Shown: positions 6,211 to 30,076, numbered from the stretch's first letter. The stretch: 52,535 nt of DNA from a virus (IMGVR_UViG_3300047510_002055:1-52535); one strand, 5' to 3'. The notes: generated by a model from the sequence alone, not told the origin. Made by a program: numbers and translations.

Positions 6211-6834
6211 TTACGTAGAGGCAGAATAATTAAATACTTTATAATCGTCGTAGAATAAATACTGCACTAATTTTACAAAATTATCGTCAGTAAAGTTTAA
6301 ATGGCTCAATTTATTATCTTTTGTTACTCCAACTCGTTCTATTTTGCTTGTATCTATACCCAGATTCACGCTGAGCCATTCGTTAAACTCAGACAAATTC
6401 TCATATTTGAACCAGTGTACCTTTGGGTGATAGGCCCAATGTACTTGTGTTTTGAAGAAGGATTCGTGATAGCCGATGTAATCTACACCAAATATAGTTG
6501 TCAGCGGTATATCATCTTTAGGTATACAATTCTGATGAAAGTTGTCATACAAAAAGTTGACTAAGTTTTCTATGGTATCCGATGGCATTTTGCCAAATAT
6601 ATCTAGTTCTGCTAAATGTTTTAGTGCAGACACAAATCGAGTTAGAGGATTTCGTATTACAGTAAACCCCTTATATTGCTTTTGATGTTGCAAATATAAT
6701 TCGTGAAAAGTAAAATGAAAATGTAATTTAGGTTCGTCATATGCATAAAATAGCTTTGAATATGCTCTAGTTCCCGTCTTTGGTACCTTTACCCAAATCC
6801 ACTTTTGATTATTTATTTTTGAAGATATTATCAT
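6211..6834 (-). CDS. Sulfotransferase (PAPS-dependent, carbohydrate type)
   Basis: A 207-residue protein with both PAPS-binding signatures of sulfotransferases. The 5'-phosphosulfate loop is VKVPKTGTRAYSKL (residues 15-28) and the 3'-phosphate loop is TVIRNPLTRFVSAL (58-71). It would transfer sulfate from PAPS to a sugar or similar hydroxyl; the acceptor is unknown. The length is somewhat short for the family but both loops are intact. It overlaps the end of the upstream SGNH gene by 26 nt. Together with an APS-kinase-like protein at 9752-10516 it suggests that the phage supports sulfation. Confidence 0.82.
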   Translation of the reverse strand: MIISSKINNQKWIWVKVPKTGTRAYSKLFYAYDEPKLHFHFTFHELYLQHQKQYKGFTVIRNPLTRFVSALKHLAELDIFGKMPSDTIENLVNFLYDNFHQNCIPKDDIPLTTIFGVDYIGYHESFFKTQVHWAYHPKVHWFKYENLSEFNEWLSVNLGIDTSKIERVGVTKDNKLSHLNFTDDNFVKLVQYLFYDDYKVFNYSAST

Positions 6835-7624
6835 GTGTAAGTCTGGTTATAATACTATCAGCAATTACCCGATGGCATAGTTTTGACGGATGGTAATCTC
6901 TCCGCGGTTTCTTAAAGTTAGCGTAATCAGTTGCGATAGTTAATTCAGGTCTAGAATTTTCGATTACTTGAAAAATTTCACCAGTGTTAAATATTAAGTT
7001 TTTAGAATCTGTTATAGATGTAGATCTGGGAATAGAAGCGAGTATTTCAGACAGTAATCCAAATTTTGGTTTTAAAGGATTATCCATTAAATCAGAAATA
7101 GTTTCGTACCTTTCACCTTTGTACTCCAATCGTATTAGTCTGTCCGTTAACCATGTATGTTCTTTTATGTATGGAAGGATAAAATTAGGCCAACACAAAA
7201 TATATATTGGAAACTTGTGTTCATACTTTTGTAAAAACTGTAATACTTGAAGAACGTCCGATATTTTAGACTGTTCCATATACTCATCTAGCGTAAGATT
7301 ATTTTGTTCTAACCACTTAACAAAAATCTTTTCGTGCCTCCTCATCACATCAATATGTGACGTTTGTGGTAACACTGGGCTATCACTTCTCATCCACATA
7401 GTAAACTGAAACACAAACGCATCCACCGTATCATTTTCAAAAAAAGATTCCCACCACTTAATAATTTGTGTGTGGGAACCCCCTCGGAATGATTGATTTA
7501 ATGACTCAACATTGAAATGAGATGCTACTAGGTGCGAAAATCTACTAGTTTCCTTATTTCCTTCATAGTAGTCTAGACCATCACCATAAGTAAACGAACA
7601 CCCTGCGAAACCAATTTTTTTCAT
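6809..7624 (-). CDS. SGNH/GDSL-like hydrolase or acyltransferase (271 aa)
   Basis: Block I is GFAGCSFTYGDGLDYY (nucleophile Ser in GCSFT). Block II/III is represented by RGGSHTQII. A DYHPSKLCH segment near the C-terminus provides the Asp/His pair. This is the order expected for SGNH-fold esterases or O-acetyltransferases. It is one of three such proteins in the cassette, all with a GCS(F/Y) nucleophile. The substrate is unknown; deacylation or acylation of a glycan is inferred from the neighbours. No Shine-Dalgarno is obvious in the short gap before the ATG. Confidence 0.72.
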   Translation of the reverse strand: MKKIGFAGCSFTYGDGLDYYEGNKETSRFSHLVASHFNVESLNQSFRGGSHTQIIKWWESFFENDTVDAFVFQFTMWMRSDSPVLPQTSHIDVMRRHEKIFVKWLEQNNLTLDEYMEQSKISDVLQVLQFLQKYEHKFPIYILCWPNFILPYIKEHTWLTDRLIRLEYKGERYETISDLMDNPLKPKFGLLSEILASIPRSTSITDSKNLIFNTGEIFQVIENSRPELTIATDYANFKKPRRDYHPSKLCHRVIADSIITRLTHDNIFKNK

Positions 7625-7637
7625 AAAATATTAAATA

Positions 7638-9146
7638 TTATGCACAGAAGCCACCGGCACAAAATGCACCTTTACCACAATCTGCATTATAATAGCATGC
7701 GGCAGTAACTACGGTTAACGTATCCACGCCATCAACTTCGGTGAGATATTTTTCAATTTCTACCGAATCTAATTCACTGGGAGATGTGTTATATACACCG
7801 ATACTATAGCGGGTATTGTATTCAGTACCTTCCGTATCAGTAGATATCACTTGTATAATATATTTCCCGACTTCAAAATCAGATGGAGACGTGATACTTA
7901 AAGTAAGGGTGTTACCAACATATGAACTACTTATCCACGAAAATGCTTTATATAATGTTGGACCTACGTTAGACATAATTGTATAATCTTCATGAGCTGC
8001 GGCGGCAATAGGTAACGTAGTGGTAAATGTAACTTGTGTTGTTACTCCACGTTGTACTGGAAACATAGATGCGAAGGGCTTATCCCAAATCTTAAGAGCG
8101 GTAATGAATGGAGCCTTAATCAAACGATTAGGTGTAGTACCATATACTGATTCATTACGGAACAACATATCTTCAAACGCAGAATCTAGAACTAGTGTTT
8201 GAATTTGCTGTGCTGTGAATGATGAGGCTTCTTTAATATACTGGGCTACAACACCAGAGACTATAGCCGCACTAACTGAAGTTCCTGATATTTCTCCGTA
8301 TCCATCGATATTTGCAACGTGTACCCCAATTCCAGGAGCAGTTATATCAACTTCGGGCCCCCAGTTACTTGATGCTCCTGTTGCCCAAGAAATAACTCTA
8401 TCATATAAGTCAGATGCAGCAACACCAATTACAGTATTTAAACCAACTGGAGACAGTGTATCTGCTGCAACTCCGGTGTTACCTGCTGCAGCAACGACTA
8501 CTAAGCCGGCATTTTGTAACTCTGTGACTTTATTATCTAGTAGTTGACTCTTTGGTACTGTCCATGAACAGTTTACAACCTTTACTCCAGAAGTCAATAA
8601 ATGGTCAGTCAACACTGCGTCAAACGCAGTTAGTAGTTGTCCGATTGTCACAGCCCCAAATGGTATCTTTACATTCTTAACAATTGCATTCTTAGACACA
8701 CCTCTGGTTTGTCCATTAATTAAACTTGCCATAGATGTACCGTGACTAATAGTATCGGTATAAAATCCATCGTAGGTATATAAATTTTCAATAGTAGAAC
8801 CAGTAAATTCTTCGTGATGTGCATTTATACCAGAATCCATAAGATATACCACTACACCATCTCCGTGGCTGATTGGATTGTAAATGGTTCCCATCGGTAA
8901 TGCATTAGTAACCAAACGAATTTGGTGCCAATAAGCTTGTGGAGTCACGGTGGTACCTGCATCCAACTCTACTAATACGACGCCGGAAATGGCTTCAATC
9001 GTTGCTGCCGATACATCATCGGCTACTTCCAATCCTATGACACGAACTTTTTCTAATGTATAAAGTACAGTTCCATAAGTACCCAACGTTTCAACTAATA
9101 GTGTAACATTGGTGTCCGAAGCATACGCGATATTAAATGTTTTCAT
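7638..9146 (-). CDS. Subtilisin-like serine protease with Cys-rich C-terminal knob
   Basis: An S8 family protease of 502 residues. The catalytic triad is visible as D104 (YLMDSGIN), H135 (SHGTSMA) and S290 (SGTSVSAA), with oxyanion-hole N223 (AAAGNTG). Residues 1-95 look like an inhibitor-type propeptide region. After the protease domain come beta-rich modules (about 350-470), and the last 19 residues hold four Cys (484, 490, 496, 501) in a CxxGxC-style knot. There is no clear signal peptide. A virion- or tail-associated protease, or one that matures appendages, is plausible; the location between SGNH and PP-loop genes does not decide this. Confidence 0.88.
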   Translation of the reverse strand: MKTFNIAYASDTNVTLLVETLGTYGTVLYTLEKVRVIGLEVADDVSAATIEAISGVVLVELDAGTTVTPQAYWHQIRLVTNALPMGTIYNPISHGDGVVVYLMDSGINAHHEEFTGSTIENLYTYDGFYTDTISHGTSMASLINGQTRGVSKNAIVKNVKIPFGAVTIGQLLTAFDAVLTDHLLTSGVKVVNCSWTVPKSQLLDNKVTELQNAGLVVVAAAGNTGVAADTLSPVGLNTVIGVAASDLYDRVISWATGASSNWGPEVDITAPGIGVHVANIDGYGEISGTSVSAAIVSGVVAQYIKEASSFTAQQIQTLVLDSAFEDMLFRNESVYGTTPNRLIKAPFITALKIWDKPFASMFPVQRGVTTQVTFTTTLPIAAAAHEDYTIMSNVGPTLYKAFSWISSSYVGNTLTLSITSPSDFEVGKYIIQVISTDTEGTEYNTRYSIGVYNTSPSELDSVEIEKYLTEVDGVDTLTVVTAACYYNADCGKGAFCAGGFCA

Positions 9147-9162
9147 AAATGATTCCTAAAAA

Positions 9163-9738
9163 TTAGTTTACTACACTATCAGATATATTCAAAACCGATA
9201 CTGCCCATGCACGTTCCATACAAAAATAACAACCACCACAACTATCTATTCCAGTAAGACCACATGACCTTGTTTTTTTAAGTAAGTCAAGGATGTTTTC
9301 TTCAACATACATTCTTAATATTTCTACCTTGTCCATATCAATAAATGGACGTAAATGATATTCGTTTAGTGCTGGACCTCTAACTGGTGGTGTGTCACCT
9401 CGAATATACACTGTTGGTGTGAAATGTGTTACTACTTTATTACAACCAGTTAAAACTACACCTGGGTAAACACCCAATATTAGTTGTACTGCATCACGAA
9501 TAAATAAACCTTGTTGTTTTAAAGTACAAATTTTGTATCTTTCACCAAACTTATCTTGAAAATAATCGCTCAGTGGTTCAATTATCTGTTTAAAAGCATC
9601 GTCACTGTTGTTTATGAAATGACAAATAACAGGTTTATCGTATTGCTTAAGTACTAAATACGTCAACAGAGTACTGTCTACACCACCAGAGACAAGAATA
9701 TTAATATTTTCACAGTTTTCTGGTATAGATATGTTCAT
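9163..9738 (-). CDS. QueC-like PP-loop ATPase, copy 1
   Basis: I chose the ATG at 9738 (MNISIPENCENINILV). A longer frame exists only with a TTG start at 9810 that overlaps the upstream gene. The PP-loop is SGGVDST (17-23). The C-terminus has C-x7-C-G-G-C-x2-C followed by MERAWA, matching the zinc-binding end of QueC (7-cyano-7-deazaguanine synthase) and related enzymes. The family uses ATP to adenylate a carboxylate or amide for amination. At 191 residues it is a little shorter than bacterial QueC (about 230). No QueD, QueE or GCH1 is visible in this window, so a preQ0 role is uncertain. A sugar- or peptide-amidating role is an alternative. Confidence 0.75.
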   Translation of the reverse strand: MNISIPENCENINILVSGGVDSTLLTYLVLKQYDKPVICHFINNSDDAFKQIIEPLSDYFQDKFGERYKICTLKQQGLFIRDAVQLILGVYPGVVLTGCNKVVTHFTPTVYIRGDTPPVRGPALNEYHLRPFIDMDKVEILRMYVEENILDLLKKTRSCGLTGIDSCGGCYFCMERAWAVSVLNISDSVVN

Positions 9739-9751
9739 ATATAAGTATCGG

Positions 9752-10516
9752 TTATATACCCATTTCCTTCCGAATTTGGGTGGCGGAGATAGCCTCGGTT
9801 TGGGCGTCAAGGTTGATTTTCTCTACCTTATATCCCACATCCCGACCATAATATACCCCCGTAATATTCGGTACGGACATTATATAGTATTTTCCACGGT
9901 ACTTACCTTCCAACTTCTTGTGGATTCCTTCGATAACCTCCACATAATTGAATGGGTTCTTTTCGTCGGTATTATAGGTGTCTCTGACCGCAATAAGTAC
10001 CTGACCTTCCTTTTCCAAGATAGTCTCAAATAACTTCAAATGCCCATCGTGGAACGGTTGGAAACGACCAATCATCAGTCCCGTAGGATTCTGCCATCCA
10101 AAATGTACATCCTTCTTCTTGATTTCTTCAATAATGATATCCGCTTGGGTGTTGGGGTCTATCCAGCCGTTGACCAAGACATCTACCTCTGAGGGTTGTT
10201 CGAACACTCTATTTGTGTCCTCAAACCGGCCGGCGTCTATTGTATTCATAAACACAATAAAATCTGGTAAGAAGAGTTCACGGGTTTCTTCTGTGGGACA
10301 AACAAAATCTGCCACCGTGTGATGAGTCTCTACCATATCACAGAGTTCCCGCATCCGATAGGCTTGACGTTTACGGCCTGTATCGGAGAAGTCCCAATCG
10401 TTGAATTGTTTCCGTACTTCGTCTGCGTTGAAGTACGCAGCACCTAACTTTTCTGCCAATACTTTAGATAATGTAGTCTTTCCAGATCCAGGCAATCCCA
10501 TAACCAAAATTCTCAT
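9752..10516 (-). CDS. APS-kinase-like / HxGH nucleotidyltransferase fusion
   Basis: Two domains in 254 residues. Residues 1-120 are a P-loop kinase (MGLPGSGKTTLSKVL) with NADEVR after the first strand and a CPTEETRE segment, resembling adenylylsulfate kinase (CysC). Residues 145-254 are a nucleotidylyltransferase with GRFQPFHDGHL (150-160) and the closing ISATQIRKEM, as in NadM-type and cytidylyltransferase-like enzymes. The kinase could make PAPS from APS for the sulfotransferases. The second domain's substrate cannot be read from sequence, and it lacks the classic ATP-sulfurylase signature. It sits 3 nt after a DUF2061 gene, a family often found with sulfate-assimilation genes. Confidence 0.78.
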   Translation of the reverse strand: MRILVMGLPGSGKTTLSKVLAEKLGAAYFNADEVRKQFNDWDFSDTGRKRQAYRMRELCDMVETHHTVADFVCPTEETRELFLPDFIVFMNTIDAGRFEDTNRVFEQPSEVDVLVNGWIDPNTQADIIIEEIKKKDVHFGWQNPTGLMIGRFQPFHDGHLKLFETILEKEGQVLIAVRDTYNTDEKNPFNYVEVIEGIHKKLEGKYRGKYYIMSVPNITGVYYGRDVGYKVEKINLDAQTEAISATQIRKEMGI

Positions 10517-10519
10517 ATA

Positions 10520-10741
10520 CTACTCCTTATCCTTATTAATGAGTCCAAATTTAATCCATCGGTACCAAATACGTTCGTGCATGTAATATAACACAGGTTT
10601 TACTATAAGTTCAACCCCCCCTGCAATAGATGATATATAAACACTACCTGTAAGGACATATCCAATTATTACGGTCTGTACACTTCCAAGTAGTCTATAC
10701 GATATTGCTTTGGCTATGTGTCGTTTTCTTTGAACCGTCAT
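10520..10741 (-). CDS. DUF2061 small membrane protein
   Basis: A 73-residue protein with the DUF2061 pattern: KAISYRLLGSVQTVIIGYVL (first hydrophobic segment), GSVYISSIAGGVELIVKPV (second segment), then YYMHERIWYRW. Two membrane helices are evident. In bacteria DUF2061 proteins often accompany or are fused near CysN/CysC sulfate-activation genes, and here the next gene is APS-kinase-like. The start overlaps the upstream PP-loop gene by ATGA. The biochemical role of the family is unknown. Confidence 0.8.
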   Translation of the reverse strand: MTVQRKRHIAKAISYRLLGSVQTVIIGYVLTGSVYISSIAGGVELIVKPVLYYMHERIWYRWIKFGLINKDKE

Positions 10742-11316
10742 CTTGTACTTTTATCCTCTATTTGCAGTTCACTAAATGCCCAAATCCGTTCCCTACACTG
10801 CCAACAGGTATTACATCTACCAAATTCGCGTTCGGTACAAGTGTGTGTTAGTTCTACTAAATCCATAATATCGTATCGTACATACGCCTGTACAATGTCT
10901 GTTTTATAACAATCAAAAAATGGTTGACGATGTTTCGGATGATTTCTACGAACTCTGGTCGGACCACCAGGTAATATATCATCTGGATATACGTTTCCTG
11001 CAAAATATAAAATATCATAGTCAGTTTCTATTGATTTCAATGCCACATTTATTATGTTTGCATGATATATCAACGGATTTCCTATAAACTTTGGTTTCTT
11101 GACTTGCTTATCTAATTTTTGATTCACCCAGTCTATTATAGGTTGAACATAATGTTTAGCCCCATCCGTCTTTGGTATCGTGAACGTTATGATATTATCA
11201 ATGTTTTTTGCCAGTAAATATAATAATAATGTACTATCCATACCTCCAGATAACATTATACCTACTCTATCTGTTGAGTTGATTTTACTTAATCCCAATA
11301 ATTCTTCCGATATCAT
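10738..11316 (-). CDS. QueC-like PP-loop ATPase, copy 2
   Basis: A 192-residue protein with the PP-loop SGGMDST (23-29) and a C-terminal zinc motif C-x7-C-x2-C-x2-C ending RERIWAF, the same arrangement as the copy at 9163-9738. The two are clear paralogues but quite diverged. Between the motifs lie GNVYPDDILPGGPTRVRR and PFFDCYKTDIV, corresponding to RGDTPPVRGPALNEYHLRP in the other copy. It overlaps both neighbours by 4 nt (ATGA), so it belongs to a translationally coupled unit with the sulfotransferase-like and DUF2061 genes. Confidence 0.75.
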   Translation of the reverse strand: MISEELLGLSKINSTDRVGIMLSGGMDSTLLLYLLAKNIDNIITFTIPKTDGAKHYVQPIIDWVNQKLDKQVKKPKFIGNPLIYHANIINVALKSIETDYDILYFAGNVYPDDILPGGPTRVRRNHPKHRQPFFDCYKTDIVQAYVRYDIMDLVELTHTCTEREFGRCNTCWQCRERIWAFSELQIEDKSTR

Positions 11317-11960
11317 ACTATATATCCAAATAATTTGCTACTAATACTATCATACTGTTTGTTAAACTCATCTACATTTTTTAATACATCTACATCAGAA
11401 TAATATGGTGCTACTCTTTTGTAACGTGGGGTTACGTTTGGTAAATTTAATTTTTCTAATACATTTTCACTATTAGTAAAAATAAATTCATCATAAAACA
11501 CATAATCACATCGTTGTTCATATTCCATGTGAAGTTTATAATGTTCAAACCTTTCGGTTATTAATTCATCTGAAAAGATTAGTTTACCCACAAATGGTTC
11601 TCTAATATTTTTCCTATCTGTTCCATTACTATATGTTTTAAAATGTTTTTCTACCAATGCTTTTAGTAAACGTTTTCTGTAGTCTACTGGTTTTATGAAA
11701 ATTGTAGCGTAGTTTTCATTACCAATAAACCGTTCGGCTAACCACGGATAGTGATTAATCACCATCTTTACTGTTGTCGGTGGTTCCTTATTTACAAACC
11801 GTTCATACTTTTGTTTTATTGAATCTTCTGTATTTAATTCTGGATTGAATGGCTCTAAATCCGTACCGATATGTTGTGGGTCCATATACGATAAACTGCT
11901 GTTGATAAGACTATGTAAATAACGAGAACCAGTTCTTGGTAAATGAAAAATACAATACAT
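11313..11960 (-). CDS. Sulfotransferase-like protein (215 aa)
   Basis: The N-terminus MYCIFHLPRTGSRYLHSLIN has the shape of a sulfotransferase 5'-phosphosulfate loop (PRTGSR). The second (3'-phosphate) loop may be TIFIKPVDYRKRLLKALV, which is weaker than in the 6211-6834 protein because the usual R-P/D-P core is altered. The rest is alpha/beta with many aromatic residues. Probably a diverged sulfotransferase; a P-loop kinase is less likely. It overlaps both neighbours and is in one unit with the carbamoyltransferase. Confidence 0.6.
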   Translation of the reverse strand: MYCIFHLPRTGSRYLHSLINSSLSYMDPQHIGTDLEPFNPELNTEDSIKQKYERFVNKEPPTTVKMVINHYPWLAERFIGNENYATIFIKPVDYRKRLLKALVEKHFKTYSNGTDRKNIREPFVGKLIFSDELITERFEHYKLHMEYEQRCDYVFYDEFIFTNSENVLEKLNLPNVTPRYKRVAPYYSDVDVLKNVDEFNKQYDSISSKLFGYIV

Positions 11961-13411
11961 TACAGTACCTTGATTCCATATGTTTCTTCGAATGCTCGGG
12001 CATCATTTATATTATTTACCATTGGTTTTCCCTTAATGTTCAAACTGGTATTAAGTAACATAGGACATCCGGTTTCTTCATACCAACTAGTTAACAATCT
12101 GTGAAATCCAGGATTATCTCTTTCAGTCACAGTTTGTACCCGTGAGGTTCCATCGGCGTGAATAATTGCAGGAAACTCTTCTGGTCGTTTACATTTTGCC
12201 ACAAACTGCATATATGGACTACGTGGTGTCACCATATCAAAGTAATCTTGTGCGTGTTCTTCCAAGATAGATGGTGCGAAAGGACGAAACTTTTGTCTAC
12301 GTTTGATTTCGTTGACCTTATCCTTAATATCCGTTCCCCGTGGGTCTGCCAACAAACTACGATTTCCCAAAGCTCTTGGTCCGAATTCTGCTCGACCATT
12401 GGCAATACCTACTAGTTTAACATCTTTTAATTGGGAAATCAACCCCTCTACTGGATATTTTTCTCCTATATCATGTCCTAAGAACGGAGAGGTGAATTTG
12501 ATATGTTGTTGTGTATGTGCTGTAATTGCCCCCAAACTGTTTCCTGCGTCACCTGGATTTGGCATTATCCATACGTTATCGAAATACTTGTATGCGATAC
12601 TATTTGCTACACAATTTAGTGCACACCCACCACTTAATACTAGATTGGTTGCCCCCGTAAGTTTCTTAGTATATTCCAATAAATCAGTAAACACCAACTC
12701 ATAAATGTACTGGGTTGCCGCGGCAATATCGTACATATCTTGTTCGGATGTTAGTTCTTGTCGCCACCACATACATCCACGATGAAGATTGTGTCGTAGT
12801 TTTAGTATTGTACTACCATCAAAAAAATCTTCTATTATCGAACTTGCATATTTTGACGGGTCACCATATGCTGCCATGCCCATCAAGATGTATTCTTCTT
12901 CATTTGGTTTTAGTCCCACTCGTTGGGTCATAGCGGAATACCACAATCCTAAACTATGTGGGTACTTAATAGAAAACTTTTTGTCCAGTTTAGCCCCGTT
13001 TCCACGCCAGATAGTGGTGGTGTCAAACTCTCCAATTGCGTCAATCACCAATACTGCTGCATCATCAAACTGAGAAGTATAATAACCTGCCGATGCATGA
13101 CTGTGATGGTGGTCTACGGTAACTACTGGTGCTGTTATTCCGTAATTACGAACATATTGTTTGGGATTGTTGTTCATCCAGCCTTGACCCGCTCGGAATT
13201 GACGTAATGACTTTATCAGTGGCCGTTCATACCAGACCACTTCATCAGGTTCACCGTATCTATAGGCATCTGCCACGATGTCAGGGTTCAGATGAGCATC
13301 ATTCTTCACACCAGAATAGCGTTCTGATTGTGAGGCAAACAATATTTTTTTATCTTGCACCACCGTGATGGCAGCGTCATGACTGTTGGCAGAAATTCCC
13401 CAGATAATCAT
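11960..13411 (-). CDS. NodU/CmcH-type carbamoyltransferase
   Basis: A 483-residue protein of the carbamoyltransferase family. The N-terminal ASKHA-type domain starts MIIWGISANSHDAAITVV. The metal and carbamoyl-phosphate-site histidines are in HHHSHA (101-106), LSGGCALNCVAN (259-270) is the conserved loop, and the C-terminal YrdC-like/Carbam_C part contains GRAEFGPRALGNRSLLADPR (339-358) and FRPFAPSILEE. Such enzymes carbamoylate a hydroxyl on a sugar or antibiotic scaffold using carbamoyl phosphate. The length is below the usual 550-600 residues, but all core motifs are present. It fits a sugar-decoration role with the neighbouring sulfotransferases. Confidence 0.9.
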   Translation of the reverse strand: MIIWGISANSHDAAITVVQDKKILFASQSERYSGVKNDAHLNPDIVADAYRYGEPDEVVWYERPLIKSLRQFRAGQGWMNNNPKQYVRNYGITAPVVTVDHHHSHASAGYYTSQFDDAAVLVIDAIGEFDTTTIWRGNGAKLDKKFSIKYPHSLGLWYSAMTQRVGLKPNEEEYILMGMAAYGDPSKYASSIIEDFFDGSTILKLRHNLHRGCMWWRQELTSEQDMYDIAAATQYIYELVFTDLLEYTKKLTGATNLVLSGGCALNCVANSIAYKYFDNVWIMPNPGDAGNSLGAITAHTQQHIKFTSPFLGHDIGEKYPVEGLISQLKDVKLVGIANGRAEFGPRALGNRSLLADPRGTDIKDKVNEIKRRQKFRPFAPSILEEHAQDYFDMVTPRSPYMQFVAKCKRPEEFPAIIHADGTSRVQTVTERDNPGFHRLLTSWYEETGCPMLLNTSLNIKGKPMVNNINDARAFEETYGIKVL

Positions 13412-19111: not shown

Positions 19112-19991
19112 GCTGAATTATCTTTTGGATTTGTGTTGCTACTTGTAGTTGATGTTGGGGTCCATAATGAGAACCATCTGCCGCACGAAATATTTTTTTT
19201 CCCGATTGCATCATATCCCATCCTGCTCCAATATCATAATCAAGTAAATTACATTGTATTCCCGTATACTTTTTTATCGACAATAAATCCGAAGTATTCC
19301 AGGATAACTGATTTGGTAAATTATATACTTTTACTCCCCATGCAGAGCATAGTGCGTTGGCTGCACTGAAATCTTCTATGAAATCATTACTCCATAGAGT
19401 ATTTGATTTTAATCTCATATCAAATATTTCATCTATTATTTTATCGTTGTTATCTAAATGGTTATCTATTCTCCATCTAAAATTTAAATGAACTGGAGAA
19501 CCTGCAGTCCTAATATAAGTATTTCTTGCTGCTTCTGTCCAACACAATAACACTCGTTTTGGTTTTGGTCTGTTTGATAAAAACCAAGAAAACAAAGTGT
19601 TCTTCATATTTTTATTACTGTTTCCACCCTTTGCAAGATTTACGGTTCTAGTATTTAATAAATTTTCGTAATGTGTAACCCACATTTCACTTTTTCTCAA
19701 ACCAATACCTTCAACAAACGAACAACCTAAAATCATATCAAACTCACCGTCTACGAAAGTATCGAATTCATCGGTTCTATAACCATAAGAATTAAGTACG
19801 TAAAAATTATCTTCTAATTCATAATATGGCCAATCAGTATTAGAAATTCCAAGTTCTGTAACTTTTTTAAAAGTCTTTTCGTACAAATCTTTTTCAAACG
19901 TCCCAGAAAATTTTGATTTTCTTTCCAATCCGTAGAATTGTACATAATTAAAAATATCATTAGTTGTATAACTGGGTTCAAACTTGTACAT
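19098..19991 (-). CDS. SGNH-like hydrolase or acyltransferase (297 aa)
   Basis: The ATG at 19991 (MYKFEPSYTTNDIFNYVQF) is chosen because it has an AAAGGAAA Shine-Dalgarno about 6 nt upstream and overlaps the previous gene by only 14 nt. A longer frame to 20075 would overlap by 98 nt and adds residues encoded within that gene. Block I is MILGCSFVEGIGL (about 87-98), the next block is KGGNSNKNMKNT (121-132), and the C-terminal DGSHYGPQHQ supplies the Asp/His pair. This is the third SGNH-type protein in the cassette. Confidence 0.72.
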   Translation of the reverse strand: MYKFEPSYTTNDIFNYVQFYGLERKSKFSGTFEKDLYEKTFKKVTELGISNTDWPYYELEDNFYVLNSYGYRTDEFDTFVDGEFDMILGCSFVEGIGLRKSEMWVTHYENLLNTRTVNLAKGGNSNKNMKNTLFSWFLSNRPKPKRVLLCWTEAARNTYIRTAGSPVHLNFRWRIDNHLDNNDKIIDEIFDMRLKSNTLWSNDFIEDFSAANALCSAWGVKVYNLPNQLSWNTSDLLSIKKYTGIQCNLLDYDIGAGWDMMQSGKKIFRAADGSHYGPQHQLQVATQIQKIIQHEEN

Positions 19992-23445: not shown

Positions 23446-24823
23446 CTTTACCACTCAAATAAAAGTTTTCGTATTCAGGAAATGTTTCTAAGAAATTTGT
23501 TCCTCGACGTTTATCATATTCGGTAAACCAATTATAGAAATCTTTTCTACCTTCAAGTACCTTTTCGGGAGAATATTCTGTAGTCTCCATGTACTTAACA
23601 ACCCGTTTAAATCGTTCTAACTCTAATTCAGAAAACTTTGTTACATCGTTTTCATCAGTATGTTTTTCCATGTACTTAAGAGTTTCGTACATATATGGCA
23701 TGAACTCTTCTTTCGGTAAAATATTCATATCATATTGGAGTGGTTCTTTTAAATACGGTGTATCAAACCGAATTTTTCTTTCTAATGGTCTATCTGGAGT
23801 ATCCGCAATAATTTTATTATACTTCTTTCTCCATTGTAAAATCTTCTTTAGTAATGAAGTGAATGTAGTAACTGTTAGAATGTTAAACGTAATCATAAAG
23901 GTTACGTGACTTTTTGTCATTCTAACGTATGTGTCGAGATTCTTTTCCCAGACCTTTAAATCTAAACCAGTACGAATATATTCTGCTCTCGGTCCCCATG
24001 TGTCAATACTACTAAACAGTTTAAACTTCTTAATAGAGTTCGTTTCTAGTAAGTCGCGAACGTTTTCAGACAAACGTACAACCCATTCATTCTTTCCACC
24101 CAAATTACTATTAATGTTCAACTCTAAATTCGGCATAGGGTCATCTTTTAACGAATCCAACAAACGCCAAGTGCTCTTGTGCATCAATGGTTCACCACCA
24201 GTCAATCGAAGAATGTTCAATGTTTTACGGACATCTGGCCACCAACGCCACCACGCTTCCACATAGGGGTTGGTTTCTTCTTCGTACATGGTGAACCAGT
24301 CAATATCATTTCTGTGATTGTTCACCATGGTGTAAGGACCATGTTGTTGAATCTCACGATAGTACCGCGATGATGCTTTGGGATGACAGTAACCACACTT
24401 GAAGTTACATTCATTACCAAAACTCAATTCAATGTATTCAGGATTGATATTGAAATCCCAAGGACTATTTTTTATTTCATCAAATCTATCTTCTGTGTAA
24501 ATTGATGTTGTTCGAATATGTCTGTCGGAAACATAGTCTGGACCTAATGCTTCGATGTTCCAACAGTATTGACATCCACTAGGCTTTTCCCCGTTAAGCA
24601 TTTGTAAACGTTCTTGTTTCTTTTGGGGGGTATTGTGTAATGCCGACGGATTGTCTTTAAGTTCCTCAATAGGAATCTTATGTGGCGCAGGATGATAACA
24701 ACTATGCGTTTCTCCAGTCTGTAGGTAAATGGTTACGTGATGCCATTTTGCCATACAGAAGGTTGGACTCAGTTGATTTGTTATCGGTAGAATTCTTTTG
24801 ATTCTATCTAGTTCATAACTCAT
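23405..24823 (-). CDS. Radical SAM protein, twitch/SPASM type (N-terminal Cys module) 4
   Basis: A 472-residue protein, the largest of the twitch-type set. N-terminal module: C23 in FCMAKWHHVTIY, C42 in HSCYHPAPHKIP, C84/C87 in CQYCWNIEALG. The radical SAM cluster is C139/C143/C146 in NECNFKCGYCHPKASS, and ILRLTGGEPL is the GGE motif. The HSCYHP variant of the second Cys site differs from PCC in the other three. The ATG overlaps the stop of the upstream methyltransferase-like gene (ATGA). Confidence 0.85.
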   Translation of the reverse strand: MSYELDRIKRILPITNQLSPTFCMAKWHHVTIYLQTGETHSCYHPAPHKIPIEELKDNPSALHNTPQKKQERLQMLNGEKPSGCQYCWNIEALGPDYVSDRHIRTTSIYTEDRFDEIKNSPWDFNINPEYIELSFGNECNFKCGYCHPKASSRYYREIQQHGPYTMVNNHRNDIDWFTMYEEETNPYVEAWWRWWPDVRKTLNILRLTGGEPLMHKSTWRLLDSLKDDPMPNLELNINSNLGGKNEWVVRLSENVRDLLETNSIKKFKLFSSIDTWGPRAEYIRTGLDLKVWEKNLDTYVRMTKSHVTFMITFNILTVTTFTSLLKKILQWRKKYNKIIADTPDRPLERKIRFDTPYLKEPLQYDMNILPKEEFMPYMYETLKYMEKHTDENDVTKFSELELERFKRVVKYMETTEYSPEKVLEGRKDFYNWFTEYDKRRGTNFLETFPEYENFYLSGKDAPDSRLIQITRT

Positions 24824-25461
24824 ATTTTATAACCTATGTTCATAAATCGTGTGAACTGCGAACAGTCTAATTCACCTGTATACATACTCTTCTTAATTTT
24901 GTTGGTCTTAATAAACTCTTTAAGAGTTTTCGTAGTCCTAACGTGTTCACCCTTTAATTCTTCAAAGTTGTTTCCTTGTAATGCTATCAAAACGTTTTTA
25001 GGAACATTATCGAACCACGTATTAAATACTTTTTGGTTTATATGTTCTGTTGCTGTGTTAACTATTAAACAGACATCTTTAGGGTAGAACTTGAAGTTCT
25101 CCATCTTTTCTGTTATAAAACTAATACGTGTATCATAATTTGTCAAGGTTTGTCCTTGTTTAACACAGTTTGTATCTACATCAATACTATACACGGTTGT
25201 TATATCTGGAAAATTGTCACGTAAAAACATAGCGTTTAAACCATGCCATCCTCCAAATACATACGCAGAACCTTGAAGAGTTTTATTTTCTTTCTTAAGA
25301 ACATTTTTTAATTCTTCAACTAACCATATCTTACTTTTTAGTTGACTTTCCCAAAAACATTCTAATAAAGAATATCGTTCTTCGGCAGTTTCAGCAGAAC
25401 GTATGACATTCATCCACGTACCAACTCTATGTGCAGGTATACCGTAACTATGAAACGACAT
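24820..25461 (-). CDS. Class I methyltransferase-like protein (degenerate SAM motif)
   Basis: A 213-residue protein. The Rossmann-type segment GSAYVFGGWHGLNAMFLRDN followed by VYSIDVDTNCVKQGQ and FITEKMENF resembles motifs I to III of SAM-dependent methyltransferases. The canonical GxGxG is replaced by FGGWHG. NTATEHINQKVFNTWFDNVP follows as the motif IV-like region. It may be an active methyltransferase with an altered loop or a non-catalytic paralogue. Coupled by ATGA to the radical SAM gene downstream and preceded by a 37-residue microprotein. Confidence 0.55.
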   Translation of the reverse strand: MSFHSYGIPAHRVGTWMNVIRSAETAEERYSLLECFWESQLKSKIWLVEELKNVLKKENKTLQGSAYVFGGWHGLNAMFLRDNFPDITTVYSIDVDTNCVKQGQTLTNYDTRISFITEKMENFKFYPKDVCLIVNTATEHINQKVFNTWFDNVPKNVLIALQGNNFEELKGEHVRTTKTLKEFIKTNKIKKSMYTGELDCSQFTRFMNIGYKI

Positions 25462-25577: not shown

Positions 25578-27800
25578 TTAGTTTCCCAGAACATTTAATG
25601 TTTTCTTTGTTTCTATTTCTTTGGGTTTAGTTACTCGTCTATACATTTCGAAATCACCCCAGTCCCCTTCTCCGGTATATCTGTAGGCGAATGAGAAGTC
25701 TATAGTTTTATTCAACATTTCTTCTTCTTGTAACAATAAACTAAAATCTACGTGGTTTCTACCTTCCATTCCCCATGATGGTTTTGCTAACTTTCTGGCT
25801 CTTACCGCGGTATTAGACATCATTCTACTATAGTCCTGTGCAAAGAACGGACCTTTTCTACCAGGTTGACCATTTGGTTGAAGTTGGTCTGGACGTTCTC
25901 TTGTATCTAAATGGTTGTCTACCTGTTCAAACTTCATATCAAAATCAGCTAACCATTTACCATCATCTGTAATTGAAAATCTGTATTCTGCGGTATACAT
26001 ACCTGGTCCAAATTGCCATCCGAATTCTTTAATATCAATCTCTGGATTAAACTTGACCACCGCATCATATCCACCACGTGTCTTCCACAACATTCTGAAG
26101 AATGGCCACATCTCGTTTACAAGAGTGTCTGCGAACGGATTAATATTAGGTTTGATTATTCTATAATCGAAATCTTCGTATTCAACTTCTCTCAAAGTAT
26201 TAGGATTATGTAGTTTAATACTATAATGTTCCTTTTCTAAATTGAAACGAATAGGATACCCGAATGGAGTTTCCGTACATCCACGCATAAAATCTAAGAA
26301 CATATGGAAAGTTTTCACACGATGCATTACATGAGTACCACCTTTTGTTAGGTCATGAGTAATCCAGTGTCCTTGATATTTGTGTGCACTTACATTAAAC
26401 TTGTGTGTGTTTTGCCCCACAATAGTTTCTGGACCCACTGCCATACCCACACCGGCACCCACGTTGTTGATGTTGTTGTTTCTCATTCTCCATAGGAATG
26501 TCATACTATCAGCAAAGTCTTGGAAATCTTCTGTGGGAAATCCCACAATCCAGTTGGTGGCGGCATAGATTCCCACTTCTTTACCATGACGGAAGTTGGC
26601 TTCCATTTCTTCAATTGTCACACGTTTGTCCATATCGTCTAGTACTCGTTGACTTCCAGACTCAATACCATAATTTAACATGATACATCCACCTGCCTTT
26701 AAGTCCTTAAAGTACTCCAAATCCATACGTCCATCACAACGACAATATCCTGTCCAATGAATCTTCAATTCCTTGGCTTCTACTGCCTTACAGAAGGCAC
26801 GAAGTTCTTTTAAGTTACCATTCACTAAACTATCGATGAACCAAATAACGTCTGTACCTTTATTATAATACAACCATTCAATTTCTTTTAATGCGTCCAC
26901 TGCACTCCGTTGACGATACTTCCAGAAATGAGTTTCTTCACAAAATGTACACTTTGCAGTACATCCACGACTAAACTGACTGTTAACTCCGTTTGGAATT
27001 TCATATTGCGAGAAATCAATACTTTCATAATCTGGCATAGGAAGATTATTGATTTGAATACGTTCTCCTTCTGGCTGAATCATAATGTATGGTTCTGTAC
27101 GAACCACACCATCTTCTACTTCCTGTAGGATGTCAAGAATAGCAGCTTCACCCTCACCTGCTACTACATAGTCATAATATGGTTCTATTTCAAACCAACT
27201 CTTTTTTGTATTACTTCCACCGATGGCAATCTTAATATCAGGTCTACGTCTTTTAATTTCTTGACACATCCACTTCGTGGGTTCTGCACTAATATAATAC
27301 ATAGTAAACCCAACAATCTGTGGGTCGAACTCTAAAATTTCATCTATGGTTTTTAGTAATAATGGTTCTAATACAGGATGAATGTCCTGCATATACGTTT
27401 CGGCTAACCAATGCCAACTCGCACTTGGATCCCACAAACGGAATGGGAGTTTTTGATTAGGCCACCAATCATTTTTAAACTCAGTGTACGCCCTCATATT
27501 TAAATCATAAACTTTTGTTTCGTACCCTGCTGTTTTAGCAATACCACTTAATAATGCTAAATTATATGGTGGGAAATGTGGTGCCCACTCTGGACATAAT
27601 ACTAATGCAAGTTTTGTTTTACGTGTCTTATAATCGATATAAACCGGTGTAACGTTGTGTTGTTCGAACGGTTTAGCATATGGTTTAATAGCCTCGAACA
27701 TTGCTACGTGTTTAGCGTCAGCAATATCTGGAGCTAACGCTTCTCTAGCTTTAGCTTCTTTCGCTAATTTAGTAAGATTAAAATCAATAGGTTCAGTCAT
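25578..27800 (-). CDS. B12-binding-domain radical SAM protein
   Basis: A 740-residue protein. Residues of about 60-220 form a cobalamin-binding-like Rossmann domain (LALVLCPEWAPHFPPYNLAL, IVGFTMYY, IAIGGSNTK, VVAGEGEAAILDIL). The radical SAM cluster is C280/C284/C287 in SRGCTAKCTFCEETHFW, followed by a YYNKGTDVIWFID barrel strand and GIESGSQRVLDDM. About 300 further residues are specific. Members of this class methylate or rearrange substrates using B12 and SAM, as in the BchE/P-methylase-like group. It opens the radical SAM series and is probably translated with the microprotein that follows. The substrate is unknown. Confidence 0.88.
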   Translation of the reverse strand: MTEPIDFNLTKLAKEAKAREALAPDIADAKHVAMFEAIKPYAKPFEQHNVTPVYIDYKTRKTKLALVLCPEWAPHFPPYNLALLSGIAKTAGYETKVYDLNMRAYTEFKNDWWPNQKLPFRLWDPSASWHWLAETYMQDIHPVLEPLLLKTIDEILEFDPQIVGFTMYYISAEPTKWMCQEIKRRRPDIKIAIGGSNTKKSWFEIEPYYDYVVAGEGEAAILDILQEVEDGVVRTEPYIMIQPEGERIQINNLPMPDYESIDFSQYEIPNGVNSQFSRGCTAKCTFCEETHFWKYRQRSAVDALKEIEWLYYNKGTDVIWFIDSLVNGNLKELRAFCKAVEAKELKIHWTGYCRCDGRMDLEYFKDLKAGGCIMLNYGIESGSQRVLDDMDKRVTIEEMEANFRHGKEVGIYAATNWIVGFPTEDFQDFADSMTFLWRMRNNNINNVGAGVGMAVGPETIVGQNTHKFNVSAHKYQGHWITHDLTKGGTHVMHRVKTFHMFLDFMRGCTETPFGYPIRFNLEKEHYSIKLHNPNTLREVEYEDFDYRIIKPNINPFADTLVNEMWPFFRMLWKTRGGYDAVVKFNPEIDIKEFGWQFGPGMYTAEYRFSITDDGKWLADFDMKFEQVDNHLDTRERPDQLQPNGQPGRKGPFFAQDYSRMMSNTAVRARKLAKPSWGMEGRNHVDFSLLLQEEEMLNKTIDFSFAYRYTGEGDWGDFEMYRRVTKPKEIETKKTLNVLGN

Positions 27801-27802
27801 AA

Positions 27803-28912
27803 TTACCCGTGAAGTTCTTCAAATCGTTCTTGTAACCAGTTCCAATCCACCGTTTTTTGTAATTCATCTGGATTCTTTACATACTGTTCTGCGTACTGTA
27901 TACCGTCTTCCGCACCCTTCAATACCCACTCTGCGTTCGGACCTTCGGCAAAGGCGGTCCATCGTTGTAACCACAAATATGCATCTGGGGTATGTGCCGT
28001 AGATAATTTAACTGCTTCACGAAATGCAGTTCTCCAGGCTTCAAATGGTGACGTTGCAAAATATGCCTCACTAACCTTCATTGGAATAGTAACGGTCTTG
28101 CTGAATTGTGTGAAATCCAATCCGAAGTTTTTTGGAGTATTTAACACCAAATGACTATTGTAACAGACAATACCCATATGCCCATACTCTAAACGATTAC
28201 TCATATTTTTTGCATGAAATACTATATGAGCATCTGTAACCGTTTCAACTGGATAATTAAATACATTTAAATCAGTTATGTAATTTTTACCAGTTACTAC
28301 AAAGAATTGCCTTACGTCCTTAGCTAAATCAACACAACGATGGAACATCTTTCTTCGTCCATCTATTCCATCTATACGAATTGCACGTGGATATAAGCTG
28401 GTTAGATGCTTCCAATTTTCATCTGCGTTACTTTCTCCATTACTGACAAAGAACACAGGAACATTTTTGTCTTTTGGTCTTTTTGCCGTTGGTACAGTTA
28501 GCACTGCAGATGCTGGATTGACTTCAACAATCATTTTTTCTGACCACTTCCACGGGTCATCACTTTCTTTCTTCATCTTTTCAATAATCTTCCGTTCTCC
28601 CGCCCACCCTGCAATAAACACTTGTTCAGAATCTTTACGAACGACAAACAATACTGGACCGGAAATATGTTCCCAAGAAACTCCATTAATACACCTATAC
28701 AGTTTCTTTTCTGCAAGAGGTTGGTCAACGATCTGAACATAATCGAATACCGATAGTTCTTTTTCACCTGCTTGTGCCCACCCACCAGCGTCTTTCACCG
28801 TTTCCATATAGTCGGTAAACCATCCCAAACTACGTACCCACGGTTTGGTTTCGACTACCCAATATTTCTTAAAGAGGTCACTGTGTGCCAACCACGATTC
28901 GTTATTTAGCAT
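27803..28912 (-). CDS. Glycosyltransferase-like protein of unknown family (369 aa)
   Basis: The central segment VFFVSNGESNADENWKHL, followed by RAIRIDGIDGRRKMFHRC and FFVVTGKNYITDLNVF, recalls phage/marine GT-A-like proteins that carry VSYDE.NADENW...R.G..G...A.......VVDGDA. The aspartate pair is missing (TGKN in place of DGD), so metal-dependent transfer may be lost. The N-terminus has a Trp-rich tract (WVRSLGWFTDYM). It overlaps the next GT gene by 11 nt. Family membership is an inference from pattern. Confidence 0.5.
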   Translation of the reverse strand: MLNNESWLAHSDLFKKYWVVETKPWVRSLGWFTDYMETVKDAGGWAQAGEKELSVFDYVQIVDQPLAEKKLYRCINGVSWEHISGPVLFVVRKDSEQVFIAGWAGERKIIEKMKKESDDPWKWSEKMIVEVNPASAVLTVPTAKRPKDKNVPVFFVSNGESNADENWKHLTSLYPRAIRIDGIDGRRKMFHRCVDLAKDVRQFFVVTGKNYITDLNVFNYPVETVTDAHIVFHAKNMSNRLEYGHMGIVCYNSHLVLNTPKNFGLDFTQFSKTVTIPMKVSEAYFATSPFEAWRTAFREAVKLSTAHTPDAYLWLQRWTAFAEGPNAEWVLKGAEDGIQYAEQYVKNPDELQKTVDWNWLQERFEELHG

Positions 28913-29618
28913 TCTTCTTTACCTTTTTTGTAGGTTTTGTTTTTTCTAAATGACGTTTTACCCGTTGTTCGTCATTGGTACCGATACTTGGACCAAAAGC
29001 CCATTGTCCTACATGACGGACCTGAAAACTAAGATTCATATCTACTAGTATTTTATATCCTGCGTTACGTAACTTACCTTGAAAATAAAAATCTTCACCA
29101 TGCCAGTCTCCGTCCTTAAACTCAAAATTGAAATATGGACGATTGATTTTAGTTAAGACTTCTGTTTTCATCAACATACATCCCATTCCAATACCTTCGA
29201 CTTCTTGTAACTCTTGGTCGGCTTCCAGAGGTAACCAGTTTTCCCAATCTTCACGTTCTGGATATGCTACTGTTTGAAGCGGGACTGACCGTTTCATATA
29301 ATTAGAACAGACAATATCGACGTTATGTCCCATCAACCGCATAGCAGTGGTACTGGGGAACATCATATCGGAATCTAACCACAATGCATAATCCGCGTTT
29401 ATCGCAAGTGCCTGTCGTGCTAACTTCTCACGTTGAGACAAGAGAATGGTACTTTGGTCATATATTACGTGTACATCAATACCTGCCATCGTAGTGGTCT
29501 TAACCAACTCCACCAATGATGCGGTAAACAAACTGTAGGTATATTCTCTGCATGGGACCAGAATTGCTAATTTCGTTGGTCTGGTTTGCCAAATCGTCAA
29601 ATCGTAAATATTTTTCAT
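28902..29618 (-). CDS. GT-A family glycosyltransferase
   Basis: A 238-residue protein with LAILVPCREYTYSLFTASL at the start, a DxD metal/nucleotide-sugar motif in LDSDMMFP (D82/D84), VDIVCSNYMKR and a late GEDFYFQGKLRNAGYKI acceptor-side segment with the catalytic ED-type pair. This is typical of GT2-like and related enzymes. It sits at the front of the modification cassette, ATGA-coupled to the 153-residue gene. It presumably transfers a sugar onto a polymer or phage protein. The C-terminus is Lys-rich. Confidence 0.8.
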   Translation of the reverse strand: MKNIYDLTIWQTRPTKLAILVPCREYTYSLFTASLVELVKTTTMAGIDVHVIYDQSTILLSQREKLARQALAINADYALWLDSDMMFPSTTAMRLMGHNVDIVCSNYMKRSVPLQTVAYPEREDWENWLPLEADQELQEVEGIGMGCMLMKTEVLTKINRPYFNFEFKDGDWHGEDFYFQGKLRNAGYKILVDMNLSFQVRHVGQWAFGPSIGTNDEQRVKRHLEKTKPTKKVKKNAK

Positions 29619-30076
29619 ACGCCAGCCACTCCAGATGCAGCTAATGTTGCTGCTTGGCTGGTGATTTCACGAATCATAGTGACAATTTCTTGTACTCGTT
29701 TGACAAAGAGTTGATAATCTGCCAATGGAAACTGTGTGACAGTATTTAATGTATCGATACTGTATTTATCGAAGATGAGTATTTCCATAGCCCCTTGACG
29801 TGCCCATTTTTCGATTAACGCAAATCGTGTCGTTTGCGTTTCACCGTTTAATAAGTTCAATAAATGTTGGGGATTATGTTGGGCGAGAATACCTTCTAAG
29901 AACTTAATACGTTCCGGCCATTCACCCTTTTCTTTAAGATATTGTAATTCATATAGTAATTCAATCAATACCTTTTTGTCATATCCAATAGAAACCCATC
30001 GGACGTACTTTTCTTCGTATTCCGATGGGTTAGTATTAATTGCTGCCAATAATGTATCAAACGTTATGTGTTCCAT
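29615..30076 (-). CDS. Unknown helical protein at the head of the cassette (153 aa)
   Basis: Starts MEHITFDTLLAAINTNPSEY. It is mostly helical with a KEKGEWPERIKFLEGILAQH segment and an Ala/Ser/Val-rich end. No motif recognised. It is the first gene after a promoter-like region and a 71-nt intergenic gap and is ATGA-coupled to the glycosyltransferase, so it likely belongs to the enzyme operon. Confidence 0.6.
   Translation of the reverse strand: MEHITFDTLLAAINTNPSEYEEKYVRWVSIGYDKKVLIELLYELQYLKEKGEWPERIKFLEGILAQHNPQHLLNLLNGETQTTRFALIEKWARQGAMEILIFDKYSIDTLNTVTQFPLADYQLFVKRVQEIVTMIREITSQAATLAASGVAGV

What the first reader, a model, noticed from the sequence alone, without database searches (positions are those of the whole stretch)
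6211..30076. A 24-kb phage enzyme cassette for radical SAM, sugar, sulfate and carbamoyl chemistry inserted between two fibre regions
Over twenty consecutive, mostly overlapping genes encode enzymes that normally build or decorate glycans or peptides: five radical SAM proteins, GTs, sugar dehydrogenase, carbamoyltransferase, sulfotransferases, APS-kinase-like, three SGNH and two QueC-like proteins. They lie inside the tail-fibre part of the genome and have their own promoter-like region. Such a set in a phage suggests it synthesises a decorated polymer, possibly on its own Ser/Thr/Gly-rich fibres or on the host surface. I am not aware of a described system with this exact set.
Basis: partly seen in the sequence, partly recalled or inferred. 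Interest (0 to 1): 0.88.

Follow-up and report, generated by a model that had tools for sequence, protein, structure and literature searches.

The report
Phage tail-fibre-linked glycan-building gene module
An uncultivated tailed phage carries about 24 genes that look able to build and chemically decorate an unusual sugar, probably attached to its own tail fibres; relatives of the key enzymes occur in hundreds of environmental virus contigs but almost never in cultured phages.

Summary
Comparison with about 160 related loci splits this into two modules. Module A (27,803-30,076) is a small glycosyltransferase unit that travels with tail fibres: in a relative the same trio lies in the tail region, over 40 kb from the rest, and its signature family (F3) occurs with fibres but without radical SAM genes in 16 of 30 testable loci. 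Module B (6,211-27,800) is an add-on: 24 of 25 viral records with twitch radical SAM genes also carry F3, but not the reverse. The radical SAM paralogues are old, slot-specific orthologues, as in a multi-step pathway. Best reading: the phage makes an edited, carbamoylated and probably sulfated glycan and puts it on its fibres (about 50%); host-surface remodelling is the main rival. Marine-phage host-recognition islands with such genes are already described: a new variant of a known kind.

The parts
29615..30076 (-). Module A, gene 1: 153-aa protein of unknown function, first gene of a conserved trio
   Evidence: No Pfam hit. A 149-aa homologue (218 bits) heads the same trio in the tail region of relative G001.
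28902..29618 (-). Module A, gene 2: GT-A-type glycosyltransferase with a DSD motif
   Evidence: Anp1 E 4e-6 (below Pfam cut-off); STIV A197 E 2.6e-5; homologue in G001 trio, 402 bits.
27803..28912 (-). Module A, gene 3: F3 family, GT-A-fold C-terminal domain; the usual DxD is replaced (VTGKN), so catalysis is doubtful
   Evidence: AlphaFold model confident for residues 149-369; PDB matches to PBCV-1 glycosyltransferase and others, E 4e-4, prob 1.0 but low TM; DxD in 222 family copies, TxK here.
25578..27800 (-). Module B: B12-binding radical SAM protein (class B methylase-like)
   Evidence: Radical_SAM 1e-17 and B12-binding 3e-10, both over cut-off; 1303-bit homologue in L008.
24820..25461 (-). 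Module B: methyltransferase-like protein (family F19)
   Evidence: Methyltransf_25 E 0.0017, below cut-off; F19 family in 13 loci.
23405..24823 (-). Module B: N-twitch radical SAM, slot 1
   Evidence: NF033640 326 bits against cut-off 170; in the slot-1 clade of 75 genes, support 0.974.
22198..23454 (-). Module B: N-twitch radical SAM
   Evidence: SPASM 7.8e-17 and Radical_SAM 1.7e-8; catalytic and auxiliary cysteines invariant in A4.
20937..22214 (-). Module B: N-twitch radical SAM, slot directly before F8
   Evidence: SPASM 5e-7; clade of the slot before F8, support 1.0.
19978..20958 (-). Module B: radical SAM protein without twitch (family F8)
   Evidence: Radical_SAM 7.6e-8; F8 in 40 loci.
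19098..20075 (-). Module B: SGNH-like protein (family F20)
   Evidence: GCSF block and DGSH block in the translation; F13/F20 profile hits.
17795..19111 (-). Module B: GT-B-fold glycosyltransferase (family F1)
   Evidence: AlphaFold pLDDT 86.9; PDB best trehalose-6-phosphate synthase E 1e-4, prob 1.0; family in 71 loci.
16978..17802 (-). Module B: SGNH-like protein (family F7)
   Evidence: GCSYT and DGHP motifs; F7 in 46 loci.
15743..16990 (-). Module B: UDP-glucose/GDP-mannose dehydrogenase family enzyme
   Evidence: Pfam 4.9e-19 and 1.7e-16; phrog_9148 4e-97; F9 in 34 loci.
14632..15765 (-). Module B: second GT-B-like protein, distant relative of 17795
   Evidence: F1 profile E 4e-22.
13413..14639 (-). 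Module B: N-twitch radical SAM, fourth copy
   Evidence: NF033640 347 bits against cut-off 170.
11960..13411 (-). Module B: NodU/Nol-type O-carbamoyltransferase
   Evidence: Carbam_trans_C 9e-56, Carbam_trans_N 6e-41.
11313..11960 (-). Module B: possible sulfotransferase (P-loop-like motif only); replaced by a 36% identical protein in the sister virus
   Evidence: No family or PDB hit; swap in L003.
10738..11316 (-). Module B: QueC-like PP-loop protein; absent from sister locus L003
   Evidence: PF06508 37 bits against cut-off 22; weak match to Cap9 (E 0.007); absent in L003.
10520..10741 (-). Module B: DUF2061 small predicted membrane protein
   Evidence: PF09834 3.4e-18.
9752..10516 (-). Module B: P-loop kinase (APS-kinase-like) fused to NMNAT-like nucleotidyltransferase
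   Evidence: phrog_10255 1.4e-58; APS_kinase 23.2 bits against cut-off 21.1; NMNAT PDB hits E 1e-6.
9163..9810 (-). Module B: second QueC-like PP-loop protein
   Evidence: PF06508 32.6 bits against cut-off 22.
7638..9146 (-). Subtilase-family protease inside the run; role unclear
   Evidence: Peptidase_S8 8e-28.
6809..7624 (-). Module B: SGNH-like protein
   Evidence: GCSFTYG and DYHP motifs; F13 profile 3.6e-11.
6211..6834 (-). Module B: sulfotransferase
   Evidence: Sulfotransfer_2 27 bits against cut-off 22; phrog_3347 1e-8.
30407..48047 (-). Tail-fibre and tail genes directly upstream (collagen, S74 chaperone, Laminin_G, Gly-rich)
   Evidence: Pfam and PHROG hits.

Best explanation
The region is two adjacent modules for phage-directed glycosylation. 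Module B makes and edits a carbohydrate: the dehydrogenase oxidises a nucleotide sugar to a uronic acid; N-twitch and other radical SAM enzymes carry out successive radical edits (for example epimerisation, dehydrogenation, decarboxylation or methylation); GT-B enzymes join sugars; carbamoyl, sulfo and possibly acyl groups are added or trimmed. Module A is the fibre-linked glycosyltransferase unit that attaches the glycan to newly made tail-fibre proteins in the cytoplasm, giving each phage a changeable sugar coat on its host-contact apparatus. Shown: gene families, folds, order, purifying selection, module separability and dependence. Inferred: that all act on one carbohydrate, the order of chemistry, and that the acceptor is the fibre.
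For: Gene families and folds. Twitch and catalytic cysteines invariant; the N-twitch profile's named relatives in PDB include BtrN (a cyclitol dehydrogenase of aminoglycoside synthesis) and cytosylglucuronate decarboxylase. Fibre link: 53 of 59 N-twitch loci with enough upstream DNA have fibre-type genes upstream on the same strand, 3.0-5.3 kb before the first N-twitch gene; 38 of 47 F3-seeded loci have F2 upstream and 38 have fibre genes upstream, and 16 of 30 testable loci with both have no radical SAM gene downstream; in G001 the module A trio is in the tail region while module B is over 40 kb away. Asymmetric dependence: 24 of 25 N-twitch records carry F3, but 9 of 21 F3 records lack a strong N-twitch match, four of them 100 kb or more. 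Pathway logic: slot-specific orthologous paralogues. No recognisable undecaprenyl-phosphate sugar transferase (PF02397) or PF01943 flippase in 23 records, with positive controls, as expected if the acceptor is cytoplasmic. An Fe-S carrier gene sits next to module B in G001 and occurs in 8 of 23 N-twitch records, fitting active radical SAM enzymes.
Against: No virion chemistry exists. The window's F3 protein lacks the metal-binding DxD, so it may not be an active transferase, and its fold matches are low in TM-score. In G001 module B (L008) sits beside nucleotide-metabolism genes rather than fibres. The host could supply export machinery, so lack of a flippase is not proof. Loci counts are not independent events: some contigs are near-duplicates and only the best 80 of at least 577 were examined. 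The fibre assignment of families F4/F5 rests mainly on F5.
Confidence: 0.5

Rival explanations
1. Host-surface remodelling: the enzymes change the host's O-antigen or capsule during infection, to block competing phages, and lie beside fibres because both belong to the host-recognition island.
For: This is the published view for pelagimyophage and cyanophage clusters (PMC7029224; PMC7824862). UDP-glucose dehydrogenase, carbamoyltransferase and SGNH enzymes are common in surface-polysaccharide loci (general knowledge). Some cellular N-twitch neighbourhoods contain family 2 glycosyltransferases and carbamoyltransferases.
Against: No Bac_transf or PF01943 flippase in 23 large records. Minimal loci keep only fibre plus glycosyltransferases. 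Module A stays with the tail genes when module B moves. Other flippase or ABC-export families were not tested.
Confidence: 0.3
2. Direct protein modification: the radical SAM enzymes act on fibre polypeptides themselves (cross-links, epimerisation, C-methylation), in the manner of peptide maturases, with the sugar enzymes separate.
For: Several radical SAM paralogues per locus next to Ser/Thr/Gly-rich structural genes; the best NCBIfam matches of the B12 radical SAM include peptide and P-methylases.
Against: No precursor-peptide-like gene was recognised in the run. Radical SAM genes are accompanied by glycosyltransferases in the loci read, while glycosyltransferase-fibre loci without radical SAM exist. 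Sugar-type relatives in PDB.
Confidence: 0.1
3. DNA hypermodification: the QueC-like, radical SAM, carbamoyl and glycosyltransferase genes modify phage DNA bases.
For: QueC-pathway enzymes modify DNA in other phages (PMC6884629, listed); purine-metabolism genes sit beside module B in L008.
Against: No transglycosylase (PF01702) in 23 records, controls 14 of 14. QueC-like genes are restricted to the window group and a few loci and fail the QueC model. Strong fibre linkage. Pyrimidine-hydroxymethylation routes were not tested.
Confidence: 0.04
4. A small-molecule product (toxin or antibiotic-like sugar derivative) is made in the infected cell, as proposed for a carbamoyltransferase cluster in jumbo cyanophages.
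For: Proposal in PMC7824862 for a cluster sharing the carbamoyltransferase.
Against: No halogenase, 2OG-oxygenase or export gene was seen in the window run; tight fibre linkage.
Confidence: 0.05

Closest known systems
Host recognition cluster (HRC) of pelagimyophages and cyanomyophages (PMC7029224)
   Same: Large variable island in the structural genes holding tail fibres, glycosyltransferases, UDP-glucose 6-dehydrogenase and radical SAM cassettes.
   Different: The passages read assign it to host O-chain change and do not separate a fibre-linked glycosyltransferase unit from a radical SAM module. Here sulfotransferase, QueC-like, kinase/NMNAT and B12 radical SAM genes are added, in a phage whose sheath is nearest Microcystis phage Mel-JY01 (46%).
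T4-like environmental genomes rich in radical SAM genes (TARA_ERS488813_N000010, PMC5332604)
   Same: Many radical SAM genes in a T4-like phage, together with an Fe-S carrier.
   Different: Discussed there as Fe-S metabolism, without a glycan or fibre link.
P-SSM2 'LPS' cluster and jumbo cyanophage carbamoyl/halogenase cluster (PMC7824862)
   Same: Phage-borne sugar-modifying clusters with glycosyltransferases and carbamoyltransferases.
   Different: No sugar epimerase/dehydratase or PfkB kinase was found in the window run; radical SAM enzymes dominate instead.
Autonomous virion glycosylation of chloroviruses and mimivirus (PMC4691112, PMC9614988, as listed)
   Same: The proposed logic: the virus encodes sugar-making enzymes and transferases for its own capsid or fibrils. 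The F3 fold search lists the PBCV-1 glycosyltransferase.
   Different: Different viruses and enzymes; the phage case has no biochemical proof and the fold match is general to GT-A.
Mycobacteriophage capsid/tail-tube glycosylation (Freeman 2023, cited within PMC12619734)
   Same: Phage virion proteins carrying glycans.
   Different: Glycans on capsid and tail tube; no radical SAM or sulfo/carbamoyl chemistry in the passage read.

Membership tests
N-twitch radical SAM (NF033640) | Score over the curated cut-off of 170 bits | tested here: met
   13413 scores 346.9 and 23405 scores 326.3; 22198 and 20937 were not scanned but align with them and keep all cysteines.
N-twitch radical SAM (NF033640) | CxxxCxxC plus four auxiliary-cluster cysteines | tested here: met
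   C137, C141, C144 and C21, C40, C81, C84 invariant in 51 sequences.
QueC (7-cyano-7-deazaguanine synthase, TIGR00364) | Score over the equivalog cut-off of 150.3 bits | tested here: not met
   9163 scores 28.2; both genes match PF06508 mainly at the C-terminal cysteine end. 10738 was not scanned against TIGR00364.
APS kinase / PAPS synthase | Score over the NCBIfam APS kinase cut-offs | tested here: not met
   19.9-29.3 bits against 127-163; Pfam APS_kinase is just over cut-off (23.2 against 21.1).
NadM/NMNAT | Score over the equivalog cut-off | tested here: not met
   TIGR01527 38.6 bits against 181; NF002243 41.8 against 127.
NodU/CmcH-type carbamoyltransferase (Pfam N and C domains) | Both domains over Pfam cut-off | tested here: met
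   141 and 188 bits. The NodU equivalog itself is not met (147 against 1000).
Nucleotide-sugar dehydrogenase (TIGR03026) | Score over the subfamily cut-off of 189.8 bits | tested here: not met
   163.5 bits; Pfam N-terminal and central domains are over their cut-offs.
Sulfotransferase (PF03567) | Score over Pfam cut-off | tested here: met
   6211 scores 27 against 22; 11313 has no hit.
Lipid-carrier O-antigen/capsule cluster | Initiating sugar-phosphate transferase and flippase | tested here: not met
   0 of 23 related large records for PF02397 and PF01943. The window itself is a fragment, and other flippase families were not tested.
Pelagimyophage-type host recognition cluster | Fibres plus glycosyltransferases plus sugar enzymes in the structural region | tested here: met
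Pelagimyophage-type host recognition cluster | Position between VrlC and gp14 | not tested
   The window was not checked for these two markers.
Virion glycosylation system | Glycan covalently bound to a virion protein | not testable with these tools
   Needs mass spectrometry.

The most novel reading that the evidence does not exclude
A widespread, almost uncultured group of T4-like and jumbo phages carries an autonomous virion-glycosylation system in which ordered, slot-specific N-twitch radical SAM enzymes edit a glycan that dedicated fibre-linked glycosyltransferases put on tail fibres, with sulfo, carbamoyl and QueC-type decorations swapped between close relatives as a variable identity coat.
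Probability: 0.4. Interest if true: 0.85.

Novelty: new variant of a known kind. Interest (0 to 1): 0.62.

Why it matters
Phage-encoded sugar genes near fibres are usually filed as host LPS change. The split found here (a fixed fibre-glycosyltransferase unit, and an optional radical SAM module that depends on it) makes the alternative, that phages sugar-coat their own fibres, directly testable. If true, it would add radical SAM glycan chemistry to virus biology, explain hundreds of unannotated environmental virus genes, and bear on host range and phage competition. It also gives a defined set of uncharacterised radical SAM and glycosyltransferase families for enzymology.

Tried and rejected
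Direct DNA search of phage records gave no match. An A4-based scan of cellular genomes failed for lack of conserved blocks and was replaced by A1. PDB sequence searches for F3 and F1 were uninformative, so folds were predicted.

Considered and rejected or downgraded:
- Queuosine or deazaguanine synthesis: QueC model failed, no transglycosylase in relatives.
- A plain NAD-salvage or PAPS-synthase label for 9752: both models failed, and its cultured homologue in phage DLP_6 lies among unrelated genes.
- A simple 'one 24-kb cassette' view: modules A and B are separated in G001.
- A host-derived island misassembled into a phage: 15.7 kb is 100% identical in another viral contig (L002), and a 93-95% sister (L003) continues into the downstream flank.

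A Kyte-Doolittle membrane scan found no strong transmembrane segment in any recurrent family, but it also missed the small DUF2061 membrane protein, so it is weak evidence and not relied on. Neighbour families of cellular N-twitch genes were too mixed to settle function. The literature searches cover only the open-licence library; subscription papers may hold more.


Full report
OBSERVATION. The window is a viral record of 52,535 bases. It carries contractile-tail genes on the minus strand: sheath, tube, several collagen/S74/Laminin_G fibre genes and a baseplate hub. The sheath is nearest Microcystis phage Mel-JY01 (46%) and then a 484-kb uncultured phage and Flavobacterium phages. Between 6,211 and 30,076 lie 24 same-strand ORFs with 17 of 23 junctions overlapping. 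The second sulfotransferase and the SGNH labels rest on motifs. A subtilase and a DUF2061 membrane protein were not mentioned.

REALITY AND SELECTION. The run is not an assembly accident. Contig L002 is 100% identical over 15.7 kb and L003 is a 93-95% relative that also covers the downstream flank. Between window and L003 the cassette genes with measurable synonymous change have dN/dS between 0.02 and 0.23, while synonymous distance jumps from 0 to 1.3 between genes, a mosaic. The 11313 protein is replaced by a 36% identical one and the QueC-like gene 10738 is missing. So the enzymes are kept functional while decoration genes are exchanged.

RELATIVES. A scan with the N-twitch radical SAM alignment found at least 577 matching stretches in viral contigs, of which the best 80 loci were read. 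In 50,697 cultured phage records only two Vibrio phages matched. Representatives of the two families F2 and F3 had no match there at all. Clustering of ORFs gave a recurrent order: fibre genes F5 and F4, a 105-aa protein F6, two F2 genes with a GT-A-like DxD-type motif, a small gene, F3, two to six N-twitch genes, radical SAM F8, GT-B F1, SGNH F7, dehydrogenase F9. Fibre-type genes precede the module on the same strand in 53 of 59 loci with room to tell. The window follows the same order with unrelated fibres: fibre, small gene, GT-A, F3, radical SAM genes, F8, SGNH, F1, SGNH, dehydrogenase.

TWO MODULES. Seeding instead with F3 gave a different sample. Of 47 loci with enough upstream DNA, 38 have F2 and 38 have a fibre gene upstream. 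Of 30 loci with both and with enough downstream DNA, 16 have no radical SAM gene: the fibre-glycosyltransferase unit stands alone. Conversely 24 of 25 N-twitch-bearing records, searched whole, contain F3, whereas 9 of 21 F3-bearing records lack a strong N-twitch match, including four of 100 kb or more. In G001, which has clear relatives of most of the genes, the trio matching 27803-30076 lies among tail genes, and the rest lies more than 40 kb away beside nucleotide-metabolism genes. Module A is therefore the fibre-bound part and module B an addition that appears to depend on it.

PATHWAY CHARACTER. A tree of 279 N-twitch genes puts all 58 genes that directly follow F3 into one clade of 75 (support 0.974) whose other 17 members are also first-position genes, including window 23405. 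Genes directly before F8 form another clade (28 of 29, support 1.0) with window 20937. The paralogues are old and position-bound, as expected of different steps, not recent duplicates. All keep the radical SAM and four auxiliary cysteines. Their profile matches BtrN and cytosylglucuronate decarboxylase among solved structures, which are enzymes of sugar-like or uronic-acid substrates; this is a lead, not proof.

FOLDS. The F1 protein 17795 is a confident GT-B-like model. The C-terminal half of F3 protein 27803 is a GT-A-like fold with matches to chondroitin synthases and the PBCV-1 glycosyltransferase at E about 4e-4, with modest TM-scores. The family keeps DxD in 222 copies, but the window protein and its G001 homologue do not, so this copy may be non-catalytic.

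TARGET. Against lipid-linked polymer export: no Bac_transf and no PF01943 flippase in 23 records, with working controls. Against DNA deazaguanine chemistry: no transglycosylase. An A-type Fe-S carrier occurs in 8 of 23 N-twitch records and in G001 adjoins module B, agreeing with the earlier report of Fe-S genes in radical-SAM-rich phages (PMC5332604).

MECHANISM. The best-supported account is phage-directed glycosylation of tail fibres: the dehydrogenase makes a uronic-acid nucleotide sugar (inferred from family), radical SAM enzymes edit it (inferred), GT-B enzymes extend it (fold shown), carbamoyl and sulfo groups are added (families shown, acceptors inferred), module A transfers it to fibre (inferred from linkage). 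Host-surface change, the published view of similar islands (PMC7029224, PMC7824862), remains the chief rival.

NOVELTY. Islands with fibres, glycosyltransferases, UDP-glucose dehydrogenase and radical SAM genes are known from pelagimyophages, so this is a new variant of a known kind. What appears new is the two-module dependence, the slot-specific radical SAM series, the F2/F3 families without annotation in the libraries searched, and the combination with sulfotransferase, QueC-like and B12 radical SAM genes.

LIMITS. Loci are best matches, partly redundant, and mostly fragments; counts describe loci, not independent events. No chemistry has been observed.

Noticed in passing
L239:2014-10155 (+), L240:4238-10987 (+), L241:6026-11119 (-): Giant proteins of 1,697-2,713 aa made of 19-33 copies of a roughly 70-aa repeat (FDFSWHPD...YIYVFGTQWQKTGGP...) ending in an F3 domain without DxD, directly after the carbamoyltransferase gene.
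   Followed up: partly
L003:13806-14447 versus window 11313-11960: In a 93-95% identical sister virus the putative sulfotransferase is replaced by a 36% identical protein and the neighbouring QueC-like gene is missing: rapid swapping of decoration genes.
   Followed up: yes
L082:4403-7230: Two proteins fusing a GT7 galactosyltransferase domain to a Laminin_G lectin domain lie just upstream of three N-twitch genes, next to tail sheath and tube.
   Followed up: partly
L008:914-5637: Fe-S A-type carrier, adenylosuccinate-synthetase-like, kinase/NMNAT-like, UvdE and IMPDH-like genes beside module B in a relative's contig.
   Followed up: partly
L127, L129, L130, L131, L133, L136: Bdellovibrionota and other bacterial MAG contigs carry N-twitch radical SAM genes near F8, F24, F19 and F3-like genes without fibres: a cellular version of part of the module.
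   Followed up: partly
window 7638-9146: Subtilase-family protease with a cysteine-rich C-terminal tail inside the glycan gene run.
   Followed up: no
window 10520-10741: DUF2061 small membrane protein between the QueC-like gene and the kinase/NMNAT-like gene; role unknown.
   Followed up: no
L005:11705-16107: Vibrio phages K566/K567 (255 kb) are the only cultured phages found with N-twitch relatives; three copies, a possible laboratory model if phage and host are available.
   Followed up: no
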